Below, in pieces: positions 213 through 16,983 of a DNA stretch of 23,557 nucleotides. Under the pieces are notes generated by a model that had not been told where the DNA came from, did no database searches, and saw nothing but the letters and a program-made list of their open reading frames with translations. Position numbers and translations under genes: made by a program. The DNA lies in IMG/VR virus record IMGVR_UViG_3300049846_001224, positions 1 to 23,557 of that record. One strand, given 5' to 3'. This DNA comes from a virus. Within the stretch, counting starts at the first letter, position 1. Each line of letters begins with the position of its first letter.

Positions 213-2576
213 ATGACGGTCAGCACGACAACTTCCAGAGCAGACTACACCGGTAACGGTACGACCACCGCGTTCACGGTGCCGTTTTATTTTCTCGACA
301 ACACGCACCTGACTGTACTTCGGACACAGATCAGCAGCGGCGTGGTGACGACCTTGGCGCTGACCACCGATTACACGGTCACGGGCGCAGGCGTGTCGGG
401 GGGCGGCACGGTGACGTGCGTCACTGCGCCAACCAGCGACCAGCGGCTCAGCGTCCTTCGCAACGTCCCGCTGACCCAGCTCATTCATTACGTCGAGAAC
501 GATCCGTTCCCCGCCGCCAGCCATGAACGGGCGCTTGATCAGTTGACAATGGAAGTGCAGCAGATAAGCGAAGTGGCTGGTCGCGCGCTGCAGCTTTCGC
601 CGAACACTCCCGCCGGGACTGCATCCACTTCGCTGCCCACTCCGGCCGGCAATAAGCTGATTGGTTGGAATGAGACCGCGTCCGGTTTGCAAAACGTCGA
701 CCCCACCACACTCGCCACCATCGTGGCCTATGGCACGTCCGGCTGCGATATTTTCAGCGGCAACGGCGTTCAAACCGTTTTTACTTTGTCCGCCAATCCT
801 GGCGCGTTGTACAGCCTGGACATTTCGATCGGTGGCGTGGATCAGCGTCCGGGGGTCGACTACACGTGGACGGGCGGGACGGCGCTTACGTTTACGAGCG
901 CGCCGCCATTGGGCACGAACAACATCAAAGTGCGCTATATGCAAGGGCTGCCGCAAGGGTACACCGACAGCGCCAGCTCTTCGTTTCTCCAGGCAGGCAC
1001 GGGCGCAGTGACGCGCACTGTACGCGATAAAGCGCGGGAGATTGTAAGCGTCATGGATTTCGGTGCAAAGGGCGACGGGGTAACCGATGATGGCCCCGCT
1101 TTTACGGCAGCTTTGGCGGCGGGCAAGTCGATCTATCTGGGGGGTCCGGGATCAACCTACAGACTCGCGTCTTTTGTAGCTATTCCTGATCAGAACTTAG
1201 CCGCAGACACTGCTTTCTATATCACGGGTGATGGCGCTACGGTAAAGATCGACGCTACACTGGCCCCGTTTACGTCCGCGTCATGGGCGGCAAACCAAAC
1301 TCTTGCTACAAACCCATTCACTGGCAAGGTTTTCGTTAGCGGAATAAATTTTATCGGGACTGCCGCAGACGGCGTTTTTGACTGCGATCACATCTACAAC
1401 CTGATTGTTGAGCGGTGCCACTTTAAAGGGTTAAACAGGGTCTTTACGTCTAGCCGCGCAAAGACCGGGTTTCCAAACGGTTACATCCAATCGTTGTTTG
1501 TCAGATCTTGTGTTTTTTCGCTGGTATCGCAGTACATAATCATGGCGAAAAACGCTTTCAACGTTGTTTTTGACAGCAACCAGTGCGAGGACTGCGTAGG
1601 CGGGATCACGATAAACGGCACTGATGTTTATGCAGTCAATACGCTGCGCGTGACAAACAATCTGTATGAGGGTGGCGGCGTTTTCGTTACCGCAACTAGC
1701 ACCCTTGCCGGAACAATTTCCGGCAATTATTTGGAAGACAATATAAACGGTGACATTGGCACGAGGAAGTGCCATTTCGATTTGACCTACGACACCGTGG
1801 CGGTTGGTGGATCAAATCCATCAACGTGGGTCATACAGGGCAACTCGTCCCAAGACGTGTTGTCTCAACGTAGCGATGTTGATTTTGGCATGGTCAAAAT
1901 TAACGGTAGTTACAGCACCGTCACAGTAACCGGAAACTGGGCGAACTCTGCCGTCACCGTATCGCCTATTTTGAATGTGTACGGGAATTATTCCAGGCGC
2001 GAGCAATACTACGTAATTTCCAATTCGGCGCAGCAGTCTGGGATTGACAGTCGAGGTTCTGTGCTTGAGCGGTCACTTGCCGCAAACCTAAGTGGTACCA
2101 CGTTCACGTTTGCTTCACTGACACTGCTTCCGGACGCGCTATCTGTCGCATACCGCGGATGCGTGCTTGATATGTCAGTGGTATTGAAGTCGATGACCGC
2201 CGCCGGTTTGGTGTTTGGTGAATGCGCGTTTGATTGCAAAGTGTTTCTGTCGCCGTATGGTAGCGGTGTTGTAAACGGCTTCGGGCGTCCGACGTACTGG
2301 GATGTCAAAGGCGTTATCTCTAACTTCCTTCAGCAAACGTCCGAAGTTGTTGACAGCAGATACGCGGCGTCAACCGTCCCAGTGTTCACGGCCACGCCGA
2401 CCTTTAACCTTAGCCGGTCTGGCGCGATCATCAACTTGCTCGCAACAAACTTCAATTCCGTCACCATCCCTAACTACGGCGCGATAACCAAAGTCCTGGC
2501 GTGCGTCACGGTTCAAATCAATGGTCTGTCCGCCTTGTCTGGTGGCGCTGCGAACTGGTTTAGGCTTTCCAACTAA
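213..2576 (+). CDS. Tailspike / tail fibre with T7-like anchor and pectate-lyase-type beta-helix
   Basis: This 787-residue protein is predicted to be the receptor-binding tailspike. The start ATG at 213 follows AAGAGGA. Residues 1 to about 125 (ADYTGNGTTTAFTVPF, then the HYVENDPFPAASHERALDQLT segment) resemble the N-terminal virion-anchoring domain of T7-type tail fibres. A second related module follows near residues 180-245 (GNGVQTVFTLS through IKVRYM). FGAKGDGVTDD at about 283-293 is the hallmark opening of pectate-lyase or GH28-like beta-helix tailspikes, and the next 300 or so residues are Asn-, Val- and Gly-rich as expected of a beta-helix. Depolymerase activity on capsule or O-antigen is inferred from the fold only, because no catalytic residues can be assigned by eye. 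The DNA after about 1150 is visibly richer in A and T than the start, which suggests exchange of the host-range domain. Confidence 0.88.
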   Translation: MTVSTTTSRADYTGNGTTTAFTVPFYFLDNTHLTVLRTQISSGVVTTLALTTDYTVTGAGVSGGGTVTCVTAPTSDQRLSVLRNVPLTQLIHYVENDPFPAASHERALDQLTMEVQQISEVAGRALQLSPNTPAGTASTSLPTPAGNKLIGWNETASGLQNVDPTTLATIVAYGTSGCDIFSGNGVQTVFTLSANPGALYSLDISIGGVDQRPGVDYTWTGGTALTFTSAPPLGTNNIKVRYMQGLPQGYTDSASSSFLQAGTGAVTRTVRDKAREIVSVMDFGAKGDGVTDDGPAFTAALAAGKSIYLGGPGSTYRLASFVAIPDQNLAADTAFYITGDGATVKIDATLAPFTSASWAANQTLATNPFTGKVFVSGINFIGTAADGVFDCDHIYNLIVERCHFKGLNRVFTSSRAKTGFPNGYIQSLFVRSCVFSLVSQYIIMAKNAFNVVFDSNQCEDCVGGITINGTDVYAVNTLRVTNNLYEGGGVFVTATSTLAGTISGNYLEDNINGDIGTRKCHFDLTYDTVAVGGSNPSTWVIQGNSSQDVLSQRSDVDFGMVKINGSYSTVTVTGNWANSAVTVSPILNVYGNYSRREQYYVISNSAQQSGIDSRGSVLERSLAANLSGTTFTFASLTLLPDALSVAYRGCVLDMSVVLKSMTAAGLVFGECAFDCKVFLSPYGSGVVNGFGRPTYWDVKGVISNFLQQTSEVVDSRYAASTVPVFTATPTFNLSRSGAIINLLATNFNSVTIPNYGAITKVLACVTVQINGLSALSGGAANWFRLSN

Positions 2577-2639
2577 CACCGACGCACCCGTAAACCGGGG
2601 CTCCGAAGGCAACCTCTAACAGAAAGGCAGGGCCGATGA

Positions 2640-3530
2640 ATGACGCAACAAGTACCAAACAGCATGGTCGCCTTCGATGGCGGCGCGTTTTCTTTTCGCA
2701 ACAGGCTCATTAACGGCAGTATGCGGATGGTGCAACGCGCCACCACGTACTCACTGACGACATCGTGGGTGTACGGCTCGCTTGATCGCTGGGCGTTCGT
2801 CCAACCCACGTCGGCCAACGGCGTGGCCAACCAAGTAGCCGCGGGGCTGACGGGGTTTCAATCAGCGCTGAAGCTGGGGCGTAATAGCGGCGCTACGCAG
2901 TTGGGTCAGCTCCAGATGGGCCAAGCGCTGGAGTCAATCAACTCCATTCCGTTGCAAGGGCAGACCGTCACGCTGTCGTTCTACGCCAAGGCCGGTGCTA
3001 ATTTCAGCGGGGCCAACCTTGTACCCACGTTGTACTACGGCACCGGCACCGATCAGTCGATCACTATTGTTGGCGGATGGACTGGTGGCACCAGCGTCAA
3101 CTTCACGCAAGCCATCACAACGTCTTGGGCGCGTTATTCGTTCACCACGACATTACCTTCAACGGTGACGCAGTTGGCAGTGCTCATCGCGTACACCCCA
3201 ACAGGAACGGCAGGCGCAGACGACAATGTGTACATTACTGGGGTACAGCTTGAAGTCGGTACGGTCGCCACGCCTTTTGAGTTTTTGCCGTTCTCGACCG
3301 AACTTGCGCTGTGCCAGCGGTATTTTTGCTTTGGCGCAGGCGGTACGGTGGTGTTCAACGCAGGGGCTTACAACAGTTGCCAGTTTCCTGTGTTTATGCG
3401 CGCAACGCCTACGGTCGTCGTGACGCCCACAACAGGCACGATTAGCGGCCTTTCGGCTACGCCCAGCGGTTTCCTGGCAGCCAACTCCGCGATTTCTGGT
3501 GCAAGCTACACGGCATCCATCGAACTCTAA
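2640..3530 (+). CDS. Tail-associated carbohydrate-binding-like protein
   Basis: A 296-residue protein lies 63 nt after the tailspike and is preceded by an AAAGGCAGGG-type ribosome binding site. Its N-terminus (FSFRNRLINGSMRMVQRAT then LDRWAF) and the C-terminal third (VQLEVGTVATPFEFLPFSTE followed by LALCQRYF) match a common phage tail module in which a jelly-roll carbohydrate-binding-like domain carries the phrases FRNRLINGxM, DRW, GxxATPFE and LCQRY. Such proteins accompany tail fibres or spikes and are thought to bind surface glycans. The last 75 residues are a Thr/Ser/Gly-rich tail without a recognised domain. Its position suggests that it is a second adhesin or a spike partner. That role is inferred. 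Confidence 0.75.
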   Translation: MTQQVPNSMVAFDGGAFSFRNRLINGSMRMVQRATTYSLTTSWVYGSLDRWAFVQPTSANGVANQVAAGLTGFQSALKLGRNSGATQLGQLQMGQALESINSIPLQGQTVTLSFYAKAGANFSGANLVPTLYYGTGTDQSITIVGGWTGGTSVNFTQAITTSWARYSFTTTLPSTVTQLAVLIAYTPTGTAGADDNVYITGVQLEVGTVATPFEFLPFSTELALCQRYFCFGAGGTVVFNAGAYNSCQFPVFMRATPTVVVTPTTGTISGLSATPSGFLAANSAISGASYTASIEL

Positions 3531-4395: not shown

Positions 4396-5508
4396 TTAGG
4401 CTCGGGTCTCTTCCCGGGCCTTTTTTATTTGGCCAAGGATCTGATCCGCCGTTGCGGTGGCTGCGGCTGTGGCCACCTCGTCGACTAGGTGGGCGTAACG
4501 CTTGGTGGTCTGGGTCGATGCGTGACCCAGCAACTCGCCGATTTGCGACAGCGATAGACCCGCCGACAGCGCCGCCGAGGCGAACGAGTGCCGCAAATCG
4601 TGCATGCGCAGATCGGGGCATCCGGCCTCACGGCGCACCCGCTCCCAAAGCTTTTGCGGCGTCAGAATGCCTGTGATGGTTCCGCTGGTGCGGGGCAGTC
4701 GGTCGAGCACGTCGAGCGCCGCGGGTGGCAGATAGACTTGCTTCTCGCCGGTCTTGGAGTCCGGCAGATGGATCACGTTGCCGCGTAGCCACTCCCACTT
4801 GGCGTTGGCGATCTCGCCACGGCGCGCCCCTGTGAGGATGAGTAGGTAGAGAAACGCCACCGACTCGGGGCTGTCCTTGGCGCTGGCGTCCAGCACTTCC
4901 GCAATACGGGCCGCCTCTTCGCCTTTCATGTAGCGCCGGCGCTTGACTTCGGGGTAGCGTTTGACGCCTTCGACCGGGTTCTCTGAGACCCACTTCAACG
5001 GCCGACGGCCAAAGTTGAACATCCCCGACAAGAACGCCAACACGCGATTGGCTTCAGCGGGCGTCTCGACCATGGCTTCGTGCATGTCCGCGATCATGGC
5101 GTAGGTCACTTCACGCGCTTTCATCCGGCCAAACCTTGGCTCGACGTGGATCCGCCATTGGCGGGCATAGGTGCTGCCGCTTTTGATCCGGCTCGCGTGG
5201 CGCTTCCAGTATTCGCTCCACAGATCCGTCACCGTGGGTTCAGCCCTGGCGTCGGCGCGGGCCTGAGACGGGTCGCGCCCCGCCGCCACCTCAGTCAACA
5301 ACTCCTGCGCCACCTTGCGGGCCTGCGCCAAAGTGATGCTGCCGTATTCGCCCAGCTTGGGACGGCGCTCCTGCCCGGCCTTGGTCCGGTAGTAGAGCAA
5401 GAAGGATTTGCCGGAAGCGGTCACGCGTAGGTGCAGCCCCTTGATCGTGGCGTCGCGCAGCACGTCCCCAGGCATGGCCGCTTTGATGTTCCGTTCGCTG
5501 AGTTCCAT
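4396..5508 (-). CDS. int: Phage integrase, tyrosine recombinase
   Basis: This 370-residue site-specific recombinase is predicted to integrate the phage at a tRNA-Asn gene. The N-terminal part (GLHLRVTASGKSFLLYYRTK, then LGEYGSITLAQAR) is the DUF4102-type arm-binding domain. A core-binding domain follows at about 92-185. The catalytic set is complete: R229 in LTGARRGE, K252 in SKTGE, H303 and R306 in HDLRH, H329 in LLGHAS, and the nucleophile Y338 in TKRYAHL. The start at 5508 has GGAG 8 nt upstream. The gene lies 127 nt from the attachment core and reads away from it. Length and motifs are normal for the family, so it looks functional. Confidence 0.96.
   Translation of the reverse strand: MELSERNIKAAMPGDVLRDATIKGLHLRVTASGKSFLLYYRTKAGQERRPKLGEYGSITLAQARKVAQELLTEVAAGRDPSQARADARAEPTVTDLWSEYWKRHASRIKSGSTYARQWRIHVEPRFGRMKAREVTYAMIADMHEAMVETPAEANRVLAFLSGMFNFGRRPLKWVSENPVEGVKRYPEVKRRRYMKGEEAARIAEVLDASAKDSPESVAFLYLLILTGARRGEIANAKWEWLRGNVIHLPDSKTGEKQVYLPPAALDVLDRLPRTSGTITGILTPQKLWERVRREAGCPDLRMHDLRHSFASAALSAGLSLSQIGELLGHASTQTTKRYAHLVDEVATAAATATADQILGQIKKAREETRA
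4399..4426 (+). terminator. Rho-independent terminator of the late operon
   Basis: GGCTCGGG (4399-4406) pairs with CCCGGGCC (4413-4420) around the loop TCTCTT, with one G-T wobble, and six T residues follow directly. It ends the rightward tail and lysis transcript 24 nt after the holin stop. The hairpin lies within the last codons of the convergent integrase gene. There is no T-run in the opposite direction, so it should act on rightward transcription only. Confidence 0.85.
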
Positions 5509-8325: not shown

Positions 8326-11181
8326 TCATTTCCTGTATCGAAAGCCCCGCCAGCCTTCGGCGGAGAGTGGCAACCCCGTGGCCCAATCTGGAACCACGGA
8401 CACGATCCCCTCGATCTCCGTAATGACTTCGTCGCCAATGTCCTCGGCGATCTCTGTGACAACCTCATCGTGTACGTGCATGACCACCGGATACCCGGCG
8501 TCGTGCAGCCGCAGCATGGCTTCCGCTAACAGGTCGCGCGCCACCGCCTGGGTGATGTTCTCCGACAGCGACCCGCCGTAAGTCTTGGTCTCTTCCCATT
8601 TCTTGGTGACGCCGTTCACGCTCCAGAAATGCAGCGCCGATTTGTCTTCGCCCCACGGCGTCGTGATCGATTTGACGCTGGGGTACGGGTAGCAGAGCAC
8701 GCGGCCACTCGGCAGACGGCACCACAAGAACGATCCGGACTTCTTGAAGACCACTTGCCGCCCGATGGGCCCGGCCTTGCAAACGACGCCTAGCTCGACC
8801 GCGTTGATCGCTGCTTTTTCCAGGTCGTACCAATACCGAACGATCTTCGCGTGGCTCTCGCGCCAAGCGCGCTTGATCTCGTCGGCCAATGTGTCGTCGA
8901 CCTTGACGCCATACACACGCGCCATGCTCTGGAACGCGCCCACACCGCCGCCATAGCCCAGCGCAAGACAGTTATGTACAAGAAGCGGACCTCTCGATGT
9001 CATCACCGTGAATCGGTGACGCGGCCCCGCATTCACAACGTCGTAAACAGGCCTCCAATTCCTGGATTCGCTTCTGGAGTGCGCCGACTCGGCGTTTGTT
9101 CGCCGCGTTTTCCGCTCGGCCGATAAACCGAAGGTTGCCGGGGGCGTAGCCCCCATCAACATCGATGCGGTCAAGTTCAAGAGACGGCTGATCCCAACCC
9201 GCGAGCGTGACGATATGGGCCAGAAATTCCCGTCTATTCTTGCGCCAGGGCTCGTATACAAACACGCCTCGGCCCCCATAATGGACATATCCGGAGTCGT
9301 TGGGGTTGTGGCACCTGTTGATGCACGCGGAGATGCGGTTGAGAAGTCTGCGCCTGTGGCCGTCGTCCGGAACGACGTCTGCATACGCCCAAAAATTTTT
9401 GCGCCAATGCCCCGCTTGCCTCTTGGCGCATACGTTGCACCGAGTGCTTCGCCCTTTACGCAAGTTGTAATCCAGGACCAGATGCGGCGGAGCCTGACAG
9501 GAACATTGCACGCGAACCATGTTCTGATGACACGCGCCATACTTGTGCCGCTCGATCCCAAGCACGGTAAGTTCTCCGAACCTGTCTCCAGCGCTTGGCG
9601 GAGGATACTTTCGCTTGAAGCGAGTTCCCGCGCCCGCGTCCAAGTTTGATTCGTTCTGATTAAATGATCCGGAGTTACCTCCAACCCGGCCACGCTTATT
9701 ACTTGCTTGCTGCCCTGGCATACCACTCCTTCATGCTGGACCCATTCCACCCCGTCCCACAGCAAATCCCGCTGTGTAACCGCGATCATACTCTTTATCC
9801 CGTTATTGGTTAGCACTTGAGTATGGGGGCCAAAACACGCCACCTTGCCGATTTGGCGCTCCGCCTTGGTGACCTCGCGGATGTCCTTGCGGTAGATGCC
9901 GCTGGCCGCGTGTTCGTAAATCTTGCCGTGAGTGCGGAAGATGTCGAGCACCTTTTCTTCGCCCGCCAGCCACGCCAACACGCGCGCCTCAATAGCGCTA
10001 AAGTCCATGGCCACCAGCTCGTGCCCAGGGCTTGCGATGATCATGCCTCGGATGCTGTCGGCCATGGCGTCCATGGTCGGGCCGTAGATCATGTCAAGGA
10101 GTTGGTGCTGATTGCGGGCGATCAACTCATTGATGTGCAGGATCAGGCGCACGTTCTCGTCGTCATCCTTGGTCAACTTGCGCGGGCGCGGAAGGTTGCC
10201 GGGTTGAATGCCACGATGCGCCCAGCGGCCAGTCGATGCGCCGTGGTACTGGAAGCAACCACGCACACGGCCATCCCGGCTGGCGCGGTTCTTCATGGCG
10301 ATGAGCTTGGCGGTGCTCGACTTGGCCGCCTCTTGGCGCAGCAGTAACGCCTTACGGACAACGGAAGGCATGTCCTCAATCTTCAAGGCGTCGAGCACGT
10401 CCGCCTTGGCCAAGCCTTTGAGCTCCACACCTTGGGTACGGATCCACTTGATCAGGAGTTGGACTTCGGTGCACTTGCCAACCGCGCCGCCGGTGACGCG
10501 CAGCATTTCCTTGTCGAGCCGCGCCTTCTCGATCTCCACCATGGCGATGGCGTTGTCGATGGCGGGTAGATCGACGCGGATCCCGCGCTGGTTGATGATC
10601 TGATCGAGCACCCACACGCGCTGCTCTTTGTCCGAGAGCTGCATCATTCGCCGATCCAGTTCGCGCTCGACCTCCACGTCCTGCTTGCAATAGTCGTACA
10701 GGCGCTTGAACTTGTCGGGCGCGTCCTCTGGTTTCCAGAACGAGCCATCGGCTTTAGGCTTGGCCAACTGCATCATGATGCGGCTGCCGGCCATGTCTTT
10801 TTGCTGCGTGATGCCAAGCGCTTTGGCCGCATTCTCCAACGCGCCGGGCAAGCTCATGGCGTAGGCTTGGGCCATGGTGCATCGCATTTGTTTGGGCGAG
10901 AGGATAGGCCAACCGTACTTGGGCACGCAGACCTTGTTCCAGATTGCCAGTTCGAAGGCCGCGTTGTGGGCGACCACTTCGCCGCCGTTGCGCACGTGCT
11001 CAACAACCTTGTGGTTCAGCCCGGTTCCGGGCGTGGGAGCGTAAAGAAACGGACTTTCATCATCAAACGCAAAGGCCATGCAATGCACGCCCGTGGTCGG
11101 ATCGGTGGCGTAGTTATCCAGCCCGCACTTGGGCAAGTCGGCAGCAGAAAAAGTTTCGAGGTCGATGTGTAGTGTAGTCAT
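8326..11181 (-). CDS. polA-like: DNA polymerase I-like (family A) polymerase interrupted by an intein
   Basis: The 951-residue precursor would give a polymerase of 662 residues after splicing, a normal size for phage family A enzymes. The N-terminal DEDD 3'-5' exonuclease shows HIDLET (D7, E9), VVAHNAAFEL (70-79) and YDYCKQDVE (162-170). Polymerase motif A is LVAMDFSAIEAR (D393). Motif B is split: RQIGKVA (442-448) lies before the intein and CLALGYGGGVGAF (738-750) after it. Motif C is VMHVHDEVV (D905, E906). The ATG at 11181 has no clear Shine-Dalgarno and follows a hairpin terminator by 10 nt, so its expression may depend on read-through or coupling. Splicing is needed for an active O-helix. 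Confidence 0.96.
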   Translation of the reverse strand: MTTLHIDLETFSAADLPKCGLDNYATDPTTGVHCMAFAFDDESPFLYAPTPGTGLNHKVVEHVRNGGEVVAHNAAFELAIWNKVCVPKYGWPILSPKQMRCTMAQAYAMSLPGALENAAKALGITQQKDMAGSRIMMQLAKPKADGSFWKPEDAPDKFKRLYDYCKQDVEVERELDRRMMQLSDKEQRVWVLDQIINQRGIRVDLPAIDNAIAMVEIEKARLDKEMLRVTGGAVGKCTEVQLLIKWIRTQGVELKGLAKADVLDALKIEDMPSVVRKALLLRQEAAKSSTAKLIAMKNRASRDGRVRGCFQYHGASTGRWAHRGIQPGNLPRPRKLTKDDDENVRLILHINELIARNQHQLLDMIYGPTMDAMADSIRGMIIASPGHELVAMDFSAIEARVLAWLAGEEKVLDIFRTHGKIYEHAASGIYRKDIREVTKAERQIGKVACFGPHTQVLTNNGIKSMIAVTQRDLLWDGVEWVQHEGVVCQGSKQVISVAGLEVTPDHLIRTNQTWTRARELASSESILRQALETGSENLPCLGSSGTSMARVIRTWFACNVPVRLRRIWSWITTCVKGEALGATYAPRGKRGIGAKIFGRMQTSFRTTATGADFSTASPRASTGATTPTTPDMSIMGAEACLYTSPGARIDGNFWPISSRSRVGISRLLNLTASMLMGATPPATFGLSAERKTRRTNAESAHSRSESRNWRPVYDVVNAGPRHRFTVMTSRGPLLVHNCLALGYGGGVGAFQSMARVYGVKVDDTLADEIKRAWRESHAKIVRYWYDLEKAAINAVELGVVCKAGPIGRQVVFKKSGSFLWCRLPSGRVLCYPYPSVKSITTPWGEDKSALHFWSVNGVTKKWEETKTYGGSLSENITQAVARDLLAEAMLRLHDAGYPVVMHVHDEVVTEIAEDIGDEVITEIEGIVSVVPDWATGLPLSAEGWRGFRYRK
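8971..9837 (-). mobile_element. Intein in polymerase motif B (289 codons)
   Basis: All splicing motifs of a class 1 intein are visible in the polymerase frame. Block A is CFGPHTQVLTNNG, starting with Cys1 (codon 9835-9837). Block B is LEVTPDHLIRT, with the TxxH motif at intein residues 55-58. Block F is VYDVVNAGPRHRF, and block G is LLVHN with the penultimate His and final Asn289, followed by Cys+1 of the polymerase. The junctions rejoin as GKVA/CLALGYGGG. The splicing modules occupy roughly residues 1-85 and 250-289. The 165 residues between them are Arg/Ser/Thr/Ala-rich and resemble no domain, because that DNA encodes an HNH endonuclease in another frame. No in-frame LAGLIDADG or HNH domain is present. 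Confidence 0.95.
8972..9721 (-). CDS. HNH homing endonuclease nested out of frame within the intein
   Basis: This 249-residue protein lies on the polymerase strand but in another frame. Its ATG (9721) has GAAGGAG four bases upstream, and its TAA (8972-8974) ends on the last intein codon. Residues 45-55 (GDRFGELTVLG) begin the conserved fold of free-standing phage HNH enzymes. A zinc site is suggested by CSC (73-75) and CNVC (95-98). The HNH region runs from YVHYGGRGV through LELDRIDVDGGYAPGNLRF (182-199) to ENAANKR (204-210), the usual pattern LDRIDxxGxYxPxNxRxxxxxxxxxNKR. A helical tail (LQKRIQELEACL) follows. It should cut intein-free polymerase alleles and so spread the intein. The enzyme assignment is strong. 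Its independent expression and target are inferred. Confidence 0.93.
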   Translation of the reverse strand: MPGQQASNKRGRVGGNSGSFNQNESNLDAGAGTRFKRKYPPPSAGDRFGELTVLGIERHKYGACHQNMVRVQCSCQAPPHLVLDYNLRKGRSTRCNVCAKRQAGHWRKNFWAYADVVPDDGHRRRLLNRISACINRCHNPNDSGYVHYGGRGVFVYEPWRKNRREFLAHIVTLAGWDQPSLELDRIDVDGGYAPGNLRFIGRAENAANKRRVGALQKRIQELEACLRRCECGAASPIHGDDIERSASCT

Positions 11182-16223: not shown

Positions 16224-16290
16224 CTCTCACCTCATAGTCATGACCATATCGAGGATTTGCTCGGGATGGTCATGCTCTCACCTCATAGTC
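16224..16290. repeat. Duplicated gene junction (16-bp direct repeat, 51 bp apart)
   Basis: On the minus strand GACTATGAGGTGAGAG occurs at 16290-16275 and again at 16239-16224. The first copy encodes the end of the upstream protein (HDYEVRA stop). The second would read HDYEVRV stop in the equivalent frame but here serves as the ribosome binding region of the next gene. Between them is an 11-codon mini-ORF (16238-16273). The pattern fits deletion or replacement of a gene by recombination at repeated junctions. Confidence 0.7.
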
Positions 16291-16983
16291 GTGGAACACG
16301 GTGCCGCGCGCTGCGTCACCAACCCGGCACGGCTTAACCCATACCTGCTTGCCGCCCGGCAGCCGGCGCATATGCCCGCGTCGGTCGTGCTGGCGCGGCG
16401 ATGCGTGTGTACCGCCCAGGCGCTCGCGTTTAACTGGCTTGATCGGCTGAACGATCACGGTGCGCCAGTCATAAAGCGGTGGCTGTCCTTTCTTGATAAG
16501 CCGATCCGACGTTAGGCCGCGCTTGATTGATGGCACATGCGCCTGGGTGGCTTGCTTTGCCAAGCTCTCAAACCACAGCTCAATCAGCCCGAGCGACCAC
16601 CTAACATCGTGCTCGCTCATTGTCTCATCGGCCTCGCATGGCCCGTACCGCACCACGCCATCATCAAGGTAGTAGAAATACAGCGGGCTGGACTTTGGCT
16701 TCCAGCCGTTTGTACTGACCCACGAGTTAAACACGATGCCTTGATGCGGATCAGAACCAATCACGGTAACAAATAGCTCGTATGCCTTGCCGGTGCGCGC
16801 TGCCTTGCCGATGATAATGTTGCGATCAAACGGCGGCCGGTAATCGATCAGCCAGTCGTTTTGCTTGTATTCATCGTCGCCGCGAGCATTAAGAACCGCA
16901 GAAACGTCAAACCATGCAAGCTCGGTCGGATCGACTCCGGCCGATGCAAACCACTTCACGGATTCTTTGATAAACGGGGTCAT
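16270..16983 (-). CDS. Conserved phage hypothetical protein
   Basis: A 237-residue protein. Its middle (YELFVTVIGSDPHQGIVFNS, then PLYFYYLDDGVV) has beta-strand character. The C-terminal 45 residues contain the phrase GGTHASPRQHDRRGHMRRLP followed by GKQVWVKPCRVGD and VFHDYEV. That ending (RRGHxRxLxxGKxVWVxxxxVGD...G...HDYxV) recurs in many phage and prophage hypotheticals and suggests a nucleic-acid-binding or small beta domain. Function is not known to me. ATG 16983 overlaps the preceding stop, and the coding end is duplicated 51 bp downstream. Confidence 0.78.
   Translation of the reverse strand: MTPFIKESVKWFASAGVDPTELAWFDVSAVLNARGDDEYKQNDWLIDYRPPFDRNIIIGKAARTGKAYELFVTVIGSDPHQGIVFNSWVSTNGWKPKSSPLYFYYLDDGVVRYGPCEADETMSEHDVRWSLGLIELWFESLAKQATQAHVPSIKRGLTSDRLIKKGQPPLYDWRTVIVQPIKPVKRERLGGTHASPRQHDRRGHMRRLPGGKQVWVKPCRVGDAARGTVFHDYEVRA

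What the first reader, a model, noticed from the sequence alone, without database searches (positions are those of the whole stretch)
8971..9837. A complete HNH homing endonuclease gene nested out of frame inside an intein
Seen: the polymerase frame is open through a 289-codon intein with blocks A, B, F and G intact. On the same strand but in another frame, a 249-codon HNH gene lies wholly inside it (8972-9721). Known: intein endonucleases are normally fused in frame, and separate ones are known with split inteins. I do not recall a well-studied case of full overprinting, but could not search. Inference: a free-standing HNH gene invaded a mini-intein, or vice versa, and both frames were kept, giving a two-product selfish element from one DNA segment.
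Basis: partly seen in the sequence, partly recalled or inferred. Interest (0 to 1): 0.95.

Follow-up and report, generated by a model that had tools for sequence, protein, structure and literature searches.

The report
Phage intein hiding out-of-frame nuclease gene
A self-splicing insert (intein) in a phage DNA polymerase carries a complete nuclease gene written in a different reading frame of the same DNA; about 200 distinct phage inteins share this arrangement, and both readings are kept intact by selection.

Summary
PolA (8326-11181, minus) is open through a 289-codon intein (8971-9837). A 249-codon HNH-family ORF (8972-9721) lies wholly inside it in another frame. HMM surveys of fetched loci found 196 non-redundant contiguous phage inteins with the same design and none with the HNH in frame. 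They form two classes: HNH at +2 (94 inteins, PolA motif B, including this one) and at +1 (102, PolA and SNF2 helicases). Across the HNH cores the intein frame has 0 stops; about 384 and 524 are expected under synonymous recoding. Codon-position substitution patterns switch from intein frame to HNH frame at the core and back. AlphaFold gives a confident split Hint fold (residues 1-93 and 252-289), a disordered linker between, and a confident HNH protein. In class I an ATG for the HNH is selected at invariant Trp codons. Intein-free polymerases 82% identical exist, and element and host similarities disagree, so the unit is mobile. Split inteins with overlapping HNH/GIY-YIG ORFs sit in related polymerases. 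Closest precedents: APSE-1 P45/P46 and the ShiLan insertion. Splicing and cleavage are inferred, not shown.

The parts
8326..11181 (-). Family A DNA polymerase (PolA) precursor, 951 aa, open through the intein
   Evidence: Pfam DNA_pol_A 1.8e-22; phrog_17 DNA polymerase 8e-117
8971..9837 (-). Intein, 289 codons, Cys1 ... His-Asn, followed by Cys+1; inserted in PolA motif B between KVA and CLALGYGGG
   Evidence: intein-free relatives have Val/Ile/Glu/Thr at +1
9559..9837 (-). N-terminal half of the splicing domain (residues 1-93; blocks A and B)
   Evidence: AlphaFold pLDDT about 97; Foldseek prob 1.00 to gp41-1, DnaX, DnaB and RecA inteins; invariant C1, T55, H58
9085..9558 (-). Intein-frame linker (residues 94-251): predicted disordered, unconstrained except for absence of stops; same DNA encodes the HNH core
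   Evidence: pLDDT below 50; substitutions concentrate at the HNH third position; 0 stops against 384 expected over 94 class I inteins
8971..9084 (-). C-terminal half of the splicing domain (residues 252-289; blocks F and G)
   Evidence: pLDDT about 97; VYD...AGPRxRF...VHN conserved
8972..9721 (-). Nested HNH-family endonuclease ORF, 249 aa, in frame +2 relative to the intein
   Evidence: phrog_374 HNH endonuclease 4e-29; AlphaFold pLDDT about 95 over residues 41-235; conserved at 43-65% identity in relatives
9017..9601 (-). Folded core of the nested protein (residues 41-235), with CxC...CxxC zinc-binding-like cysteines and the LDRID...YxPGNLRF motif
   Evidence: invariant columns in A6; AlphaFold
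9726..9731 (-). AAGGAG, Shine-Dalgarno-like, 4 nt upstream of the HNH ATG (9719-9721)
   Evidence: sequence; start and spacer listed
   Evidence: sequence; ATG at this Trp is enriched in class I
8968..8970 (-). Cys+1 codon (first C-extein residue), required for splicing chemistry
   Evidence: C in 85 and S in 8 of 93 class I; other residues in the aligned intein-free relatives

Best explanation
This is a mobile two-protein element on one DNA segment. Frame 1, the polymerase frame, is translated straight through. The two ends fold into a class 1 Hint splicing domain around a disordered linker of about 158 residues, excise themselves, and restore an intact PolA active-site helix. Frame +2 of the same mRNA is translated from an internal start into a free HNH-family homing endonuclease, which is proposed to cut intein-free polA genes near motif B so that repair copies the whole segment in. 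The nuclease is thus uncoupled from splicing: the intein tolerates any stop-free linker, and the HNH evolves as an ordinary protein. Shown by computation: both ORFs, selection on both, fold predictions, start-codon selection (class I), empty sites, horizontal movement. Inferred: splicing, HNH expression, target cleavage.
For: (1) Same design in 94 (+2) and 102 (+1) non-redundant inteins, 0 in frame. (2) 0 stops in the intein frame over HNH cores against 384 and 524 expected; the third frame has 1004 and 690; eight relatives outside detected inteins have stops in both other frames. (3) Substitution rates by intein codon position, class I: extein .112/.059/.412, HNH core .090/.387/.141, last 48 nt .116/.069/.400; class II core is the mirror image.414/.169/.136. 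(4) AlphaFold: intein ends pLDDT about 97, linker below 50; HNH core about 95; Foldseek to solved inteins, prob 1.00. (5) In class I, A precedes Trp27 and Trp32 TGG (making ATG in the HNH frame) in 67/92 and 69/93 against 13 expected; class II, which does not use these sites, shows a weaker excess (20/89, 32/81; GAA:GAG not different from extein). (6) +1 residue: C or S in all 93 class I, other residues in aligned intein-free PolA, the nearest 82% identical. (7) Extein identity correlates poorly with HNH identity (r=0.26); L137 75% vs 57%, L006 36% vs 61%.
Against: No experiment. Pfam gives no HNH hit to the nested protein; the family call rests on PHROGs and structural neighbours, and the usual first HNH histidine seems replaced by Arg in 'LDRID', so catalysis is unproven. 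No strong PDB fold match for the HNH. The SD-like site has a short 4-nt spacer, and its conservation in relatives was not measured. The splicing domain is inferred from motifs and a model.
Confidence: 0.88

Rival explanations
1. Only one frame matters: the HNH gene is real and the open polymerase frame is chance in GC-rich DNA, or the intein is real and the HNH ORF is chance.
For: For this window alone the chance of an open frame is 0.016, not negligible.
Against: 0 stops against about 384 and 524 expected over 196 inteins, with many stops in the third frame; intein ends and exteins carry intein-frame periodicity and the middle HNH-frame periodicity; splice-site residues and Cys/Ser+1 track the intein.
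Confidence: 0.02
2. The HNH is made as a fusion to the N-intein by programmed -1 frameshifting rather than from its own start codon.
For: The HNH frame is the -1 frame in class I, and in many loci it is open upstream of the start.
Against: In the window the HNH frame is closed by a TGA just before its ATG. ATG at Trp27/Trp32 is strongly selected in class I and much less so in class II. 82 of 93 class I loci have an in-frame ATG before the core. Slippery sites were not scanned.
Confidence: 0.06
3. The insertion is removed at RNA level (group I intron) and not as an intein.
For: HNH ORFs are common in phage group I introns (general knowledge).
Against: No Rfam match in the window; the frame is open with intein blocks A, B, F and G and predicted Hint halves.
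Confidence: 0.01
4. The nested protein is kept for a role other than homing (for example regulation or packaging); the intein is sedentary.
For: No direct cleavage data; variant catalytic motif.
Against: Patchy distribution with 63-82% identical intein-free polymerases, host/element incongruence, and related composites at several sites and in two host proteins.
Confidence: 0.08

Closest known systems
Hamiltonella phage APSE-1 P45 (DNA polymerase) / P46 (HNH endonuclease)
   Same: P46 CDS lies wholly inside the intein-like insert of P45 in another frame; same kind of composite
   Different: Annotated as two overlapping CDS; HNH in frame +1 (class II). I found no held paper analysing it as a dual-frame intein, but van der Wilk 1999 and InBase could not be read.
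ShiLan domain (Arsenault, Gosselin and Gogarten 2025, PMC11855218)
   Same: Out-of-frame HNH inside an insertion that keeps the host frame open; a homing element in phages
   Different: No intein splicing domain, so the insert is thought to stay in the protein; no RBS, GTG start; methylase host
Salmonella Jerseyvirus DNA polymerase inteins (for example vB_SenS-Ent1 SEP1_gp37)
   Same: Same class I element; annotated as an intein 'encoding splicing domains'; nested HNH 42-43% identical
   Different: No nested CDS is annotated in the Ent1 record; Salmonella phage LPSE1 has a separate uncharacterised protein entry that matches it
Split inteins with an endonuclease gene between the halves (fractured genes; Dassa et al. 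2009, not held)
   Same: HNH or GIY-YIG ORF between and overlapping intein halves, seen here at another PolA site
   Different: There the intein frame is closed by a stop and the C-half has its own start; here one contiguous precursor is kept
Canonical inteins with in-frame LAGLIDADG or HNH domain (for example the intein in Ent1 helicase gp34)
   Same: Hint domain plus homing endonuclease between blocks B and F
   Different: Endonuclease is in the same frame and excised with the intein as one protein (by annotation)

Membership tests
Intein (class 1) | Cys/Ser first residue, block B TxxH, block F, terminal His-Asn, Cys/Ser/Thr +1 | tested here: met
   C1, T55, H58, D266, H288, N289 invariant in 23-55 sequences; +1 is C (85) or S (8)
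Intein (class 1) | Hint fold | tested here: met
   Both halves pLDDT about 97; Foldseek to solved inteins at prob 1.00, though E-values about 0.003 with the long linker in the query
Intein (class 1) | Inserted in a conserved host motif; intein-free homologues exist | tested here: met
   PolA motif B; L365 82% identical and uninterrupted
Intein (class 1) | Autocatalytic splicing | not testable with these tools
   Needs expression of the precursor
HNH homing endonuclease | Sequence or fold membership | tested here: met
   phrog_374 E=4e-29 and other HNH PHROGs; BFVD phage HNH neighbours
HNH homing endonuclease | Canonical H-N-H catalytic residues | tested here: inconclusive
   Conserved LDRID...YxPGN; first His appears to be Arg; no Pfam HNH match
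HNH homing endonuclease | Cleaves the empty allele | not testable with these tools
   Inferred from patchy distribution and incongruence
Canonical bifunctional intein | Endonuclease domain in frame with the splicing domain | tested here: not met
   HNH offset +2 here; 0 of 196 non-redundant relatives in frame
Split intein / fractured gene | Intein halves on separate ORFs | tested here: not met
   Single 951-codon ORF
ShiLan-type insertion | No splicing domain | tested here: not met
   Intact blocks and Hint halves here
Group I intron with HNH ORF | Group I intron RNA structure | tested here: not met
   No Rfam match in the window at gathering threshold

The most novel reading that the evidence does not exclude
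Out-of-frame nested inteins are a widespread architecture of phage mobile elements that arose at least twice (frames +2 and +1), and are a standing intermediate to natural split inteins: one stop codon in the unconstrained linker plus a start for the C-half turns a nested intein into a split intein with an endonuclease ORF between its halves, as seen at another site of related polymerases.
Probability: 0.5. Interest if true: 0.9.

Novelty: new variant of a known kind. Interest (0 to 1): 0.82.

Why it matters
Inteins are usually described as having their homing endonuclease in frame, or none. Here is an alternative design that stays stable across very divergent phages: splicing is uncoupled from nuclease evolution, so the endonuclease can be expressed alone and can change without disturbing splicing. 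Inteins that look endonuclease-free in annotation may carry a hidden one, which affects how the homing cycle is read. The linker frame is a natural case of selection acting on a reading frame almost solely to stay stop-free, useful for studies of overlapping genes. The side-by-side presence of nested and split versions makes an origin of split inteins testable, and yields inteins that appear to tolerate a long unstructured insert.

Tried and rejected
Pfam and NCBIfam gave no HNH or intein name for the window proteins; PHROGs did. Sequence search of PDB gave only weak matches for the HNH. PDB Foldseek gave nothing useful for the HNH. A group I intron was rejected. Sequencing error was rejected (L005; about 200 relatives). 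L120 (from IMG/VR 638275545; same length as the Salmonella phage SS3e record) is the only locus where the HNH core is in frame with intein-N; its intein frame is broken while its close relatives have the normal nested form, so I treat it as an indel in that record. The genome-contig scan gave only 5 loci, too few to judge prophages. The preprint Gosselin et al. 2025 (bioRxiv 2025.01.02.630785, 'Non-Canonical Architecture') and Dassa 2009 are not held; the preprint may already report overlapping-frame inteins, and PMC11855218 cites it for overlapping frames. I did not scan for slippery sequences and did not measure SD conservation across loci.

Full report
OBSERVATION. On the minus strand a 951-codon family A DNA polymerase ORF (8326-11181) is open through a 289-codon intein (8971-9837), and a 249-codon ORF (8972-9721) lies wholly inside it, 116 nt from the intein start, that is in frame +2. 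Splice residues are intact: Cys1, block B TPDH, block F VYD...AGPRHRF, His-Asn end and Cys+1. The polymerase is identified by Pfam and PHROGs. The nested protein matches HNH endonuclease PHROGs (phrog_374, 4e-29) but no Pfam family at a significant level.

RELATIVES. tblastn with either frame lands on the same places in phage DNA polymerase genes: EBPR siphovirus 2, Vibrio phage 97.13, Pseudomonas phage MR14 and about 150 Salmonella and E. coli phage records. In all 31 first loci the HNH is in frame +2 of an open intein, with polymerase flanks only about 22-58% identical to the window outside the identical contig. IMG/VR scans by HNH and by intein profile, then an HMM survey of 364 loci, gave 94 non-redundant class I (+2) and 102 class II (+1) contiguous inteins with nested HNH, and none in frame. 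The one in-frame record, L120, is a broken copy among normal close relatives. Class I sits at two neighbouring points of PolA motif B; class II mostly at a PolA ENI/TQA-motif site and, by flanking motif, in SNF2-type helicases, one confirmed by Pfam. Sampling was by similarity to these elements, so the numbers are not a census of all inteins.

BOTH FRAMES ARE SELECTED. Synonymous recoding of HNH cores with local codon usage predicts 384 (class I) and 524 (class II) stops in the intein frame; none occurs, while the third frame carries 1004 and 690. Inteins in this test were called on having both ends in one ORF, but only a handful of hits lacked the C-end, and those that were read were split inteins or the broken L120. 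The sequences share ancestry, so the sums are not independent trials. Eight HNH relatives outside any detected intein have stops in both other frames. For 20 disjoint class I pairs, substitution rates at intein codon positions 1/2/3 are .112/.059/.412 in the extein.136/.066/.276 at the intein start.100/.100/.231 over block B.090/.387/.141 over the HNH core.071/.142/.232 over the block F tail and .116/.069/.400 at the end. The variable position in the core is the HNH third position. Class II shows the mirror image.414/.169/.136. So the ends serve the intein, the middle serves the HNH, and only the flanks of the HNH ORF look dual-coding. The HNH third-position rate in the core (.387) is close to extein wobble (.412), so the linker sequence is nearly free apart from avoiding stops.

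STRUCTURE. AlphaFold on 55-sequence alignments gives the intein ends (1-93, 252-289) pLDDT about 97 and the linker (94-251) below 50, and the HNH core (41-235) about 95. The intein halves match solved inteins (gp41-1, DnaX, DnaB, RecA) at probability 1.00. The HNH has no good PDB match but matches phage HNH models, the first being a Salmonella phage LPSE1 protein at 40% identity.

EXPRESSION OF THE NESTED GENE. In class I, A precedes the TGG of Trp27 and Trp32 in 67/92 and 69/93 cases against about 13 expected, creating ATG in the HNH frame; class II, which does not use those sites, shows 20/89 and 32/81 (about 13 expected), a weaker excess. GAA:GAG before Trp32 is 37:13 in class I against 505:700 in exteins (p=8e-6) and 28:35 in class II (p=0.43). 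In the window the ATG at Trp32 is closed by a TGA, and the likely start is the ATG at 9721 preceded by AAGGAG with a 4-nt spacer. HNH stops fall inside the intein in 94/94 class I and 99/102 class II.

MOBILITY. The nearest polymerase, L365, is 82% identical and intein-free; the next intein-free ones are 63-68%. Aligned intein-free polymerases carry mostly Val, Ile, Glu or Thr at the +1 position, whereas intein-bearing ones carry Cys (85) or Ser (8). Extein and HNH identities to the window correlate weakly (r=0.26); L137 has 75% extein but 57% HNH identity, L006 36% and 61%. This fits horizontal spread; homing by the HNH is the inferred engine.

LINK TO SPLIT INTEINS. At an upstream PolA site (near the TGRW motif) in L018, L076, L094, L098, L121 and L190 the intein-N frame ends in a stop after about 90-130 residues, an HNH or GIY-YIG ORF overlaps it in another frame, and a new ORF carries intein-C and the rest of the polymerase. 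Nested and split forms differ in whether the linker frame stays open and whether the C-half has its own start. That one derives from the other is a hypothesis, and the direction is not tested.

PRIOR KNOWLEDGE. APSE-1 P46 is annotated as a separate CDS inside the insert of P45. Arsenault et al. 2025 (PMC11855218) describe an out-of-frame HNH in a methylase insertion without a splicing domain and cite a preprint on non-canonical actinobacteriophage inteins that I could not read. I found no held paper describing contiguous inteins with out-of-frame HNH genes as a class, but the library is incomplete. I therefore rate it a new variant of a known kind.

LIMITS. Splicing, HNH expression and cleavage are not shown. 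The HNH motif is variant (LDRID...N). Class counts depend on the search profiles.

Noticed in passing
L018:1271-2900, L076:2219-3500, L094:1966-2960, L098:1125-1930, L121:1569-2590, L190:695-1700: Split inteins at a PolA site near the TGRW motif with overlapping HNH (L094, L098, L121, L190) or GIY-YIG (L018; L076 by appearance) ORFs between the halves, in the same genes that carry a nested class I intein downstream.
   Followed up: partly
L019:2843-4849, L021:2882-5047, L078:3840-5996: Single PolA genes carrying two nested-HNH inteins in tandem, one in frame +2 and one in frame +1.
   Followed up: yes
L231:8085, L281:3080, L317:3082: Short inteins (about 120-180 codons) without a detectable HNH at PolA sites; possible mini-intein state of the cycle.
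   Followed up: no
L120: Class I intein with a broken intein frame and the HNH core fused in frame with intein-N, unlike its close relatives; probably a sequencing indel (same length as the Salmonella phage SS3e record).
   Followed up: partly
window 4396-5508 (-), 213-3530 (+): Integrase (phrog_1) and tail fiber genes: the window is a temperate-type phage with primase, PolA, ssDNA-binding protein, exonuclease and helicase genes on the minus strand.
   Followed up: no
window 16270-16983 (-): 237-aa ORF with no PHROG match.
   Followed up: no
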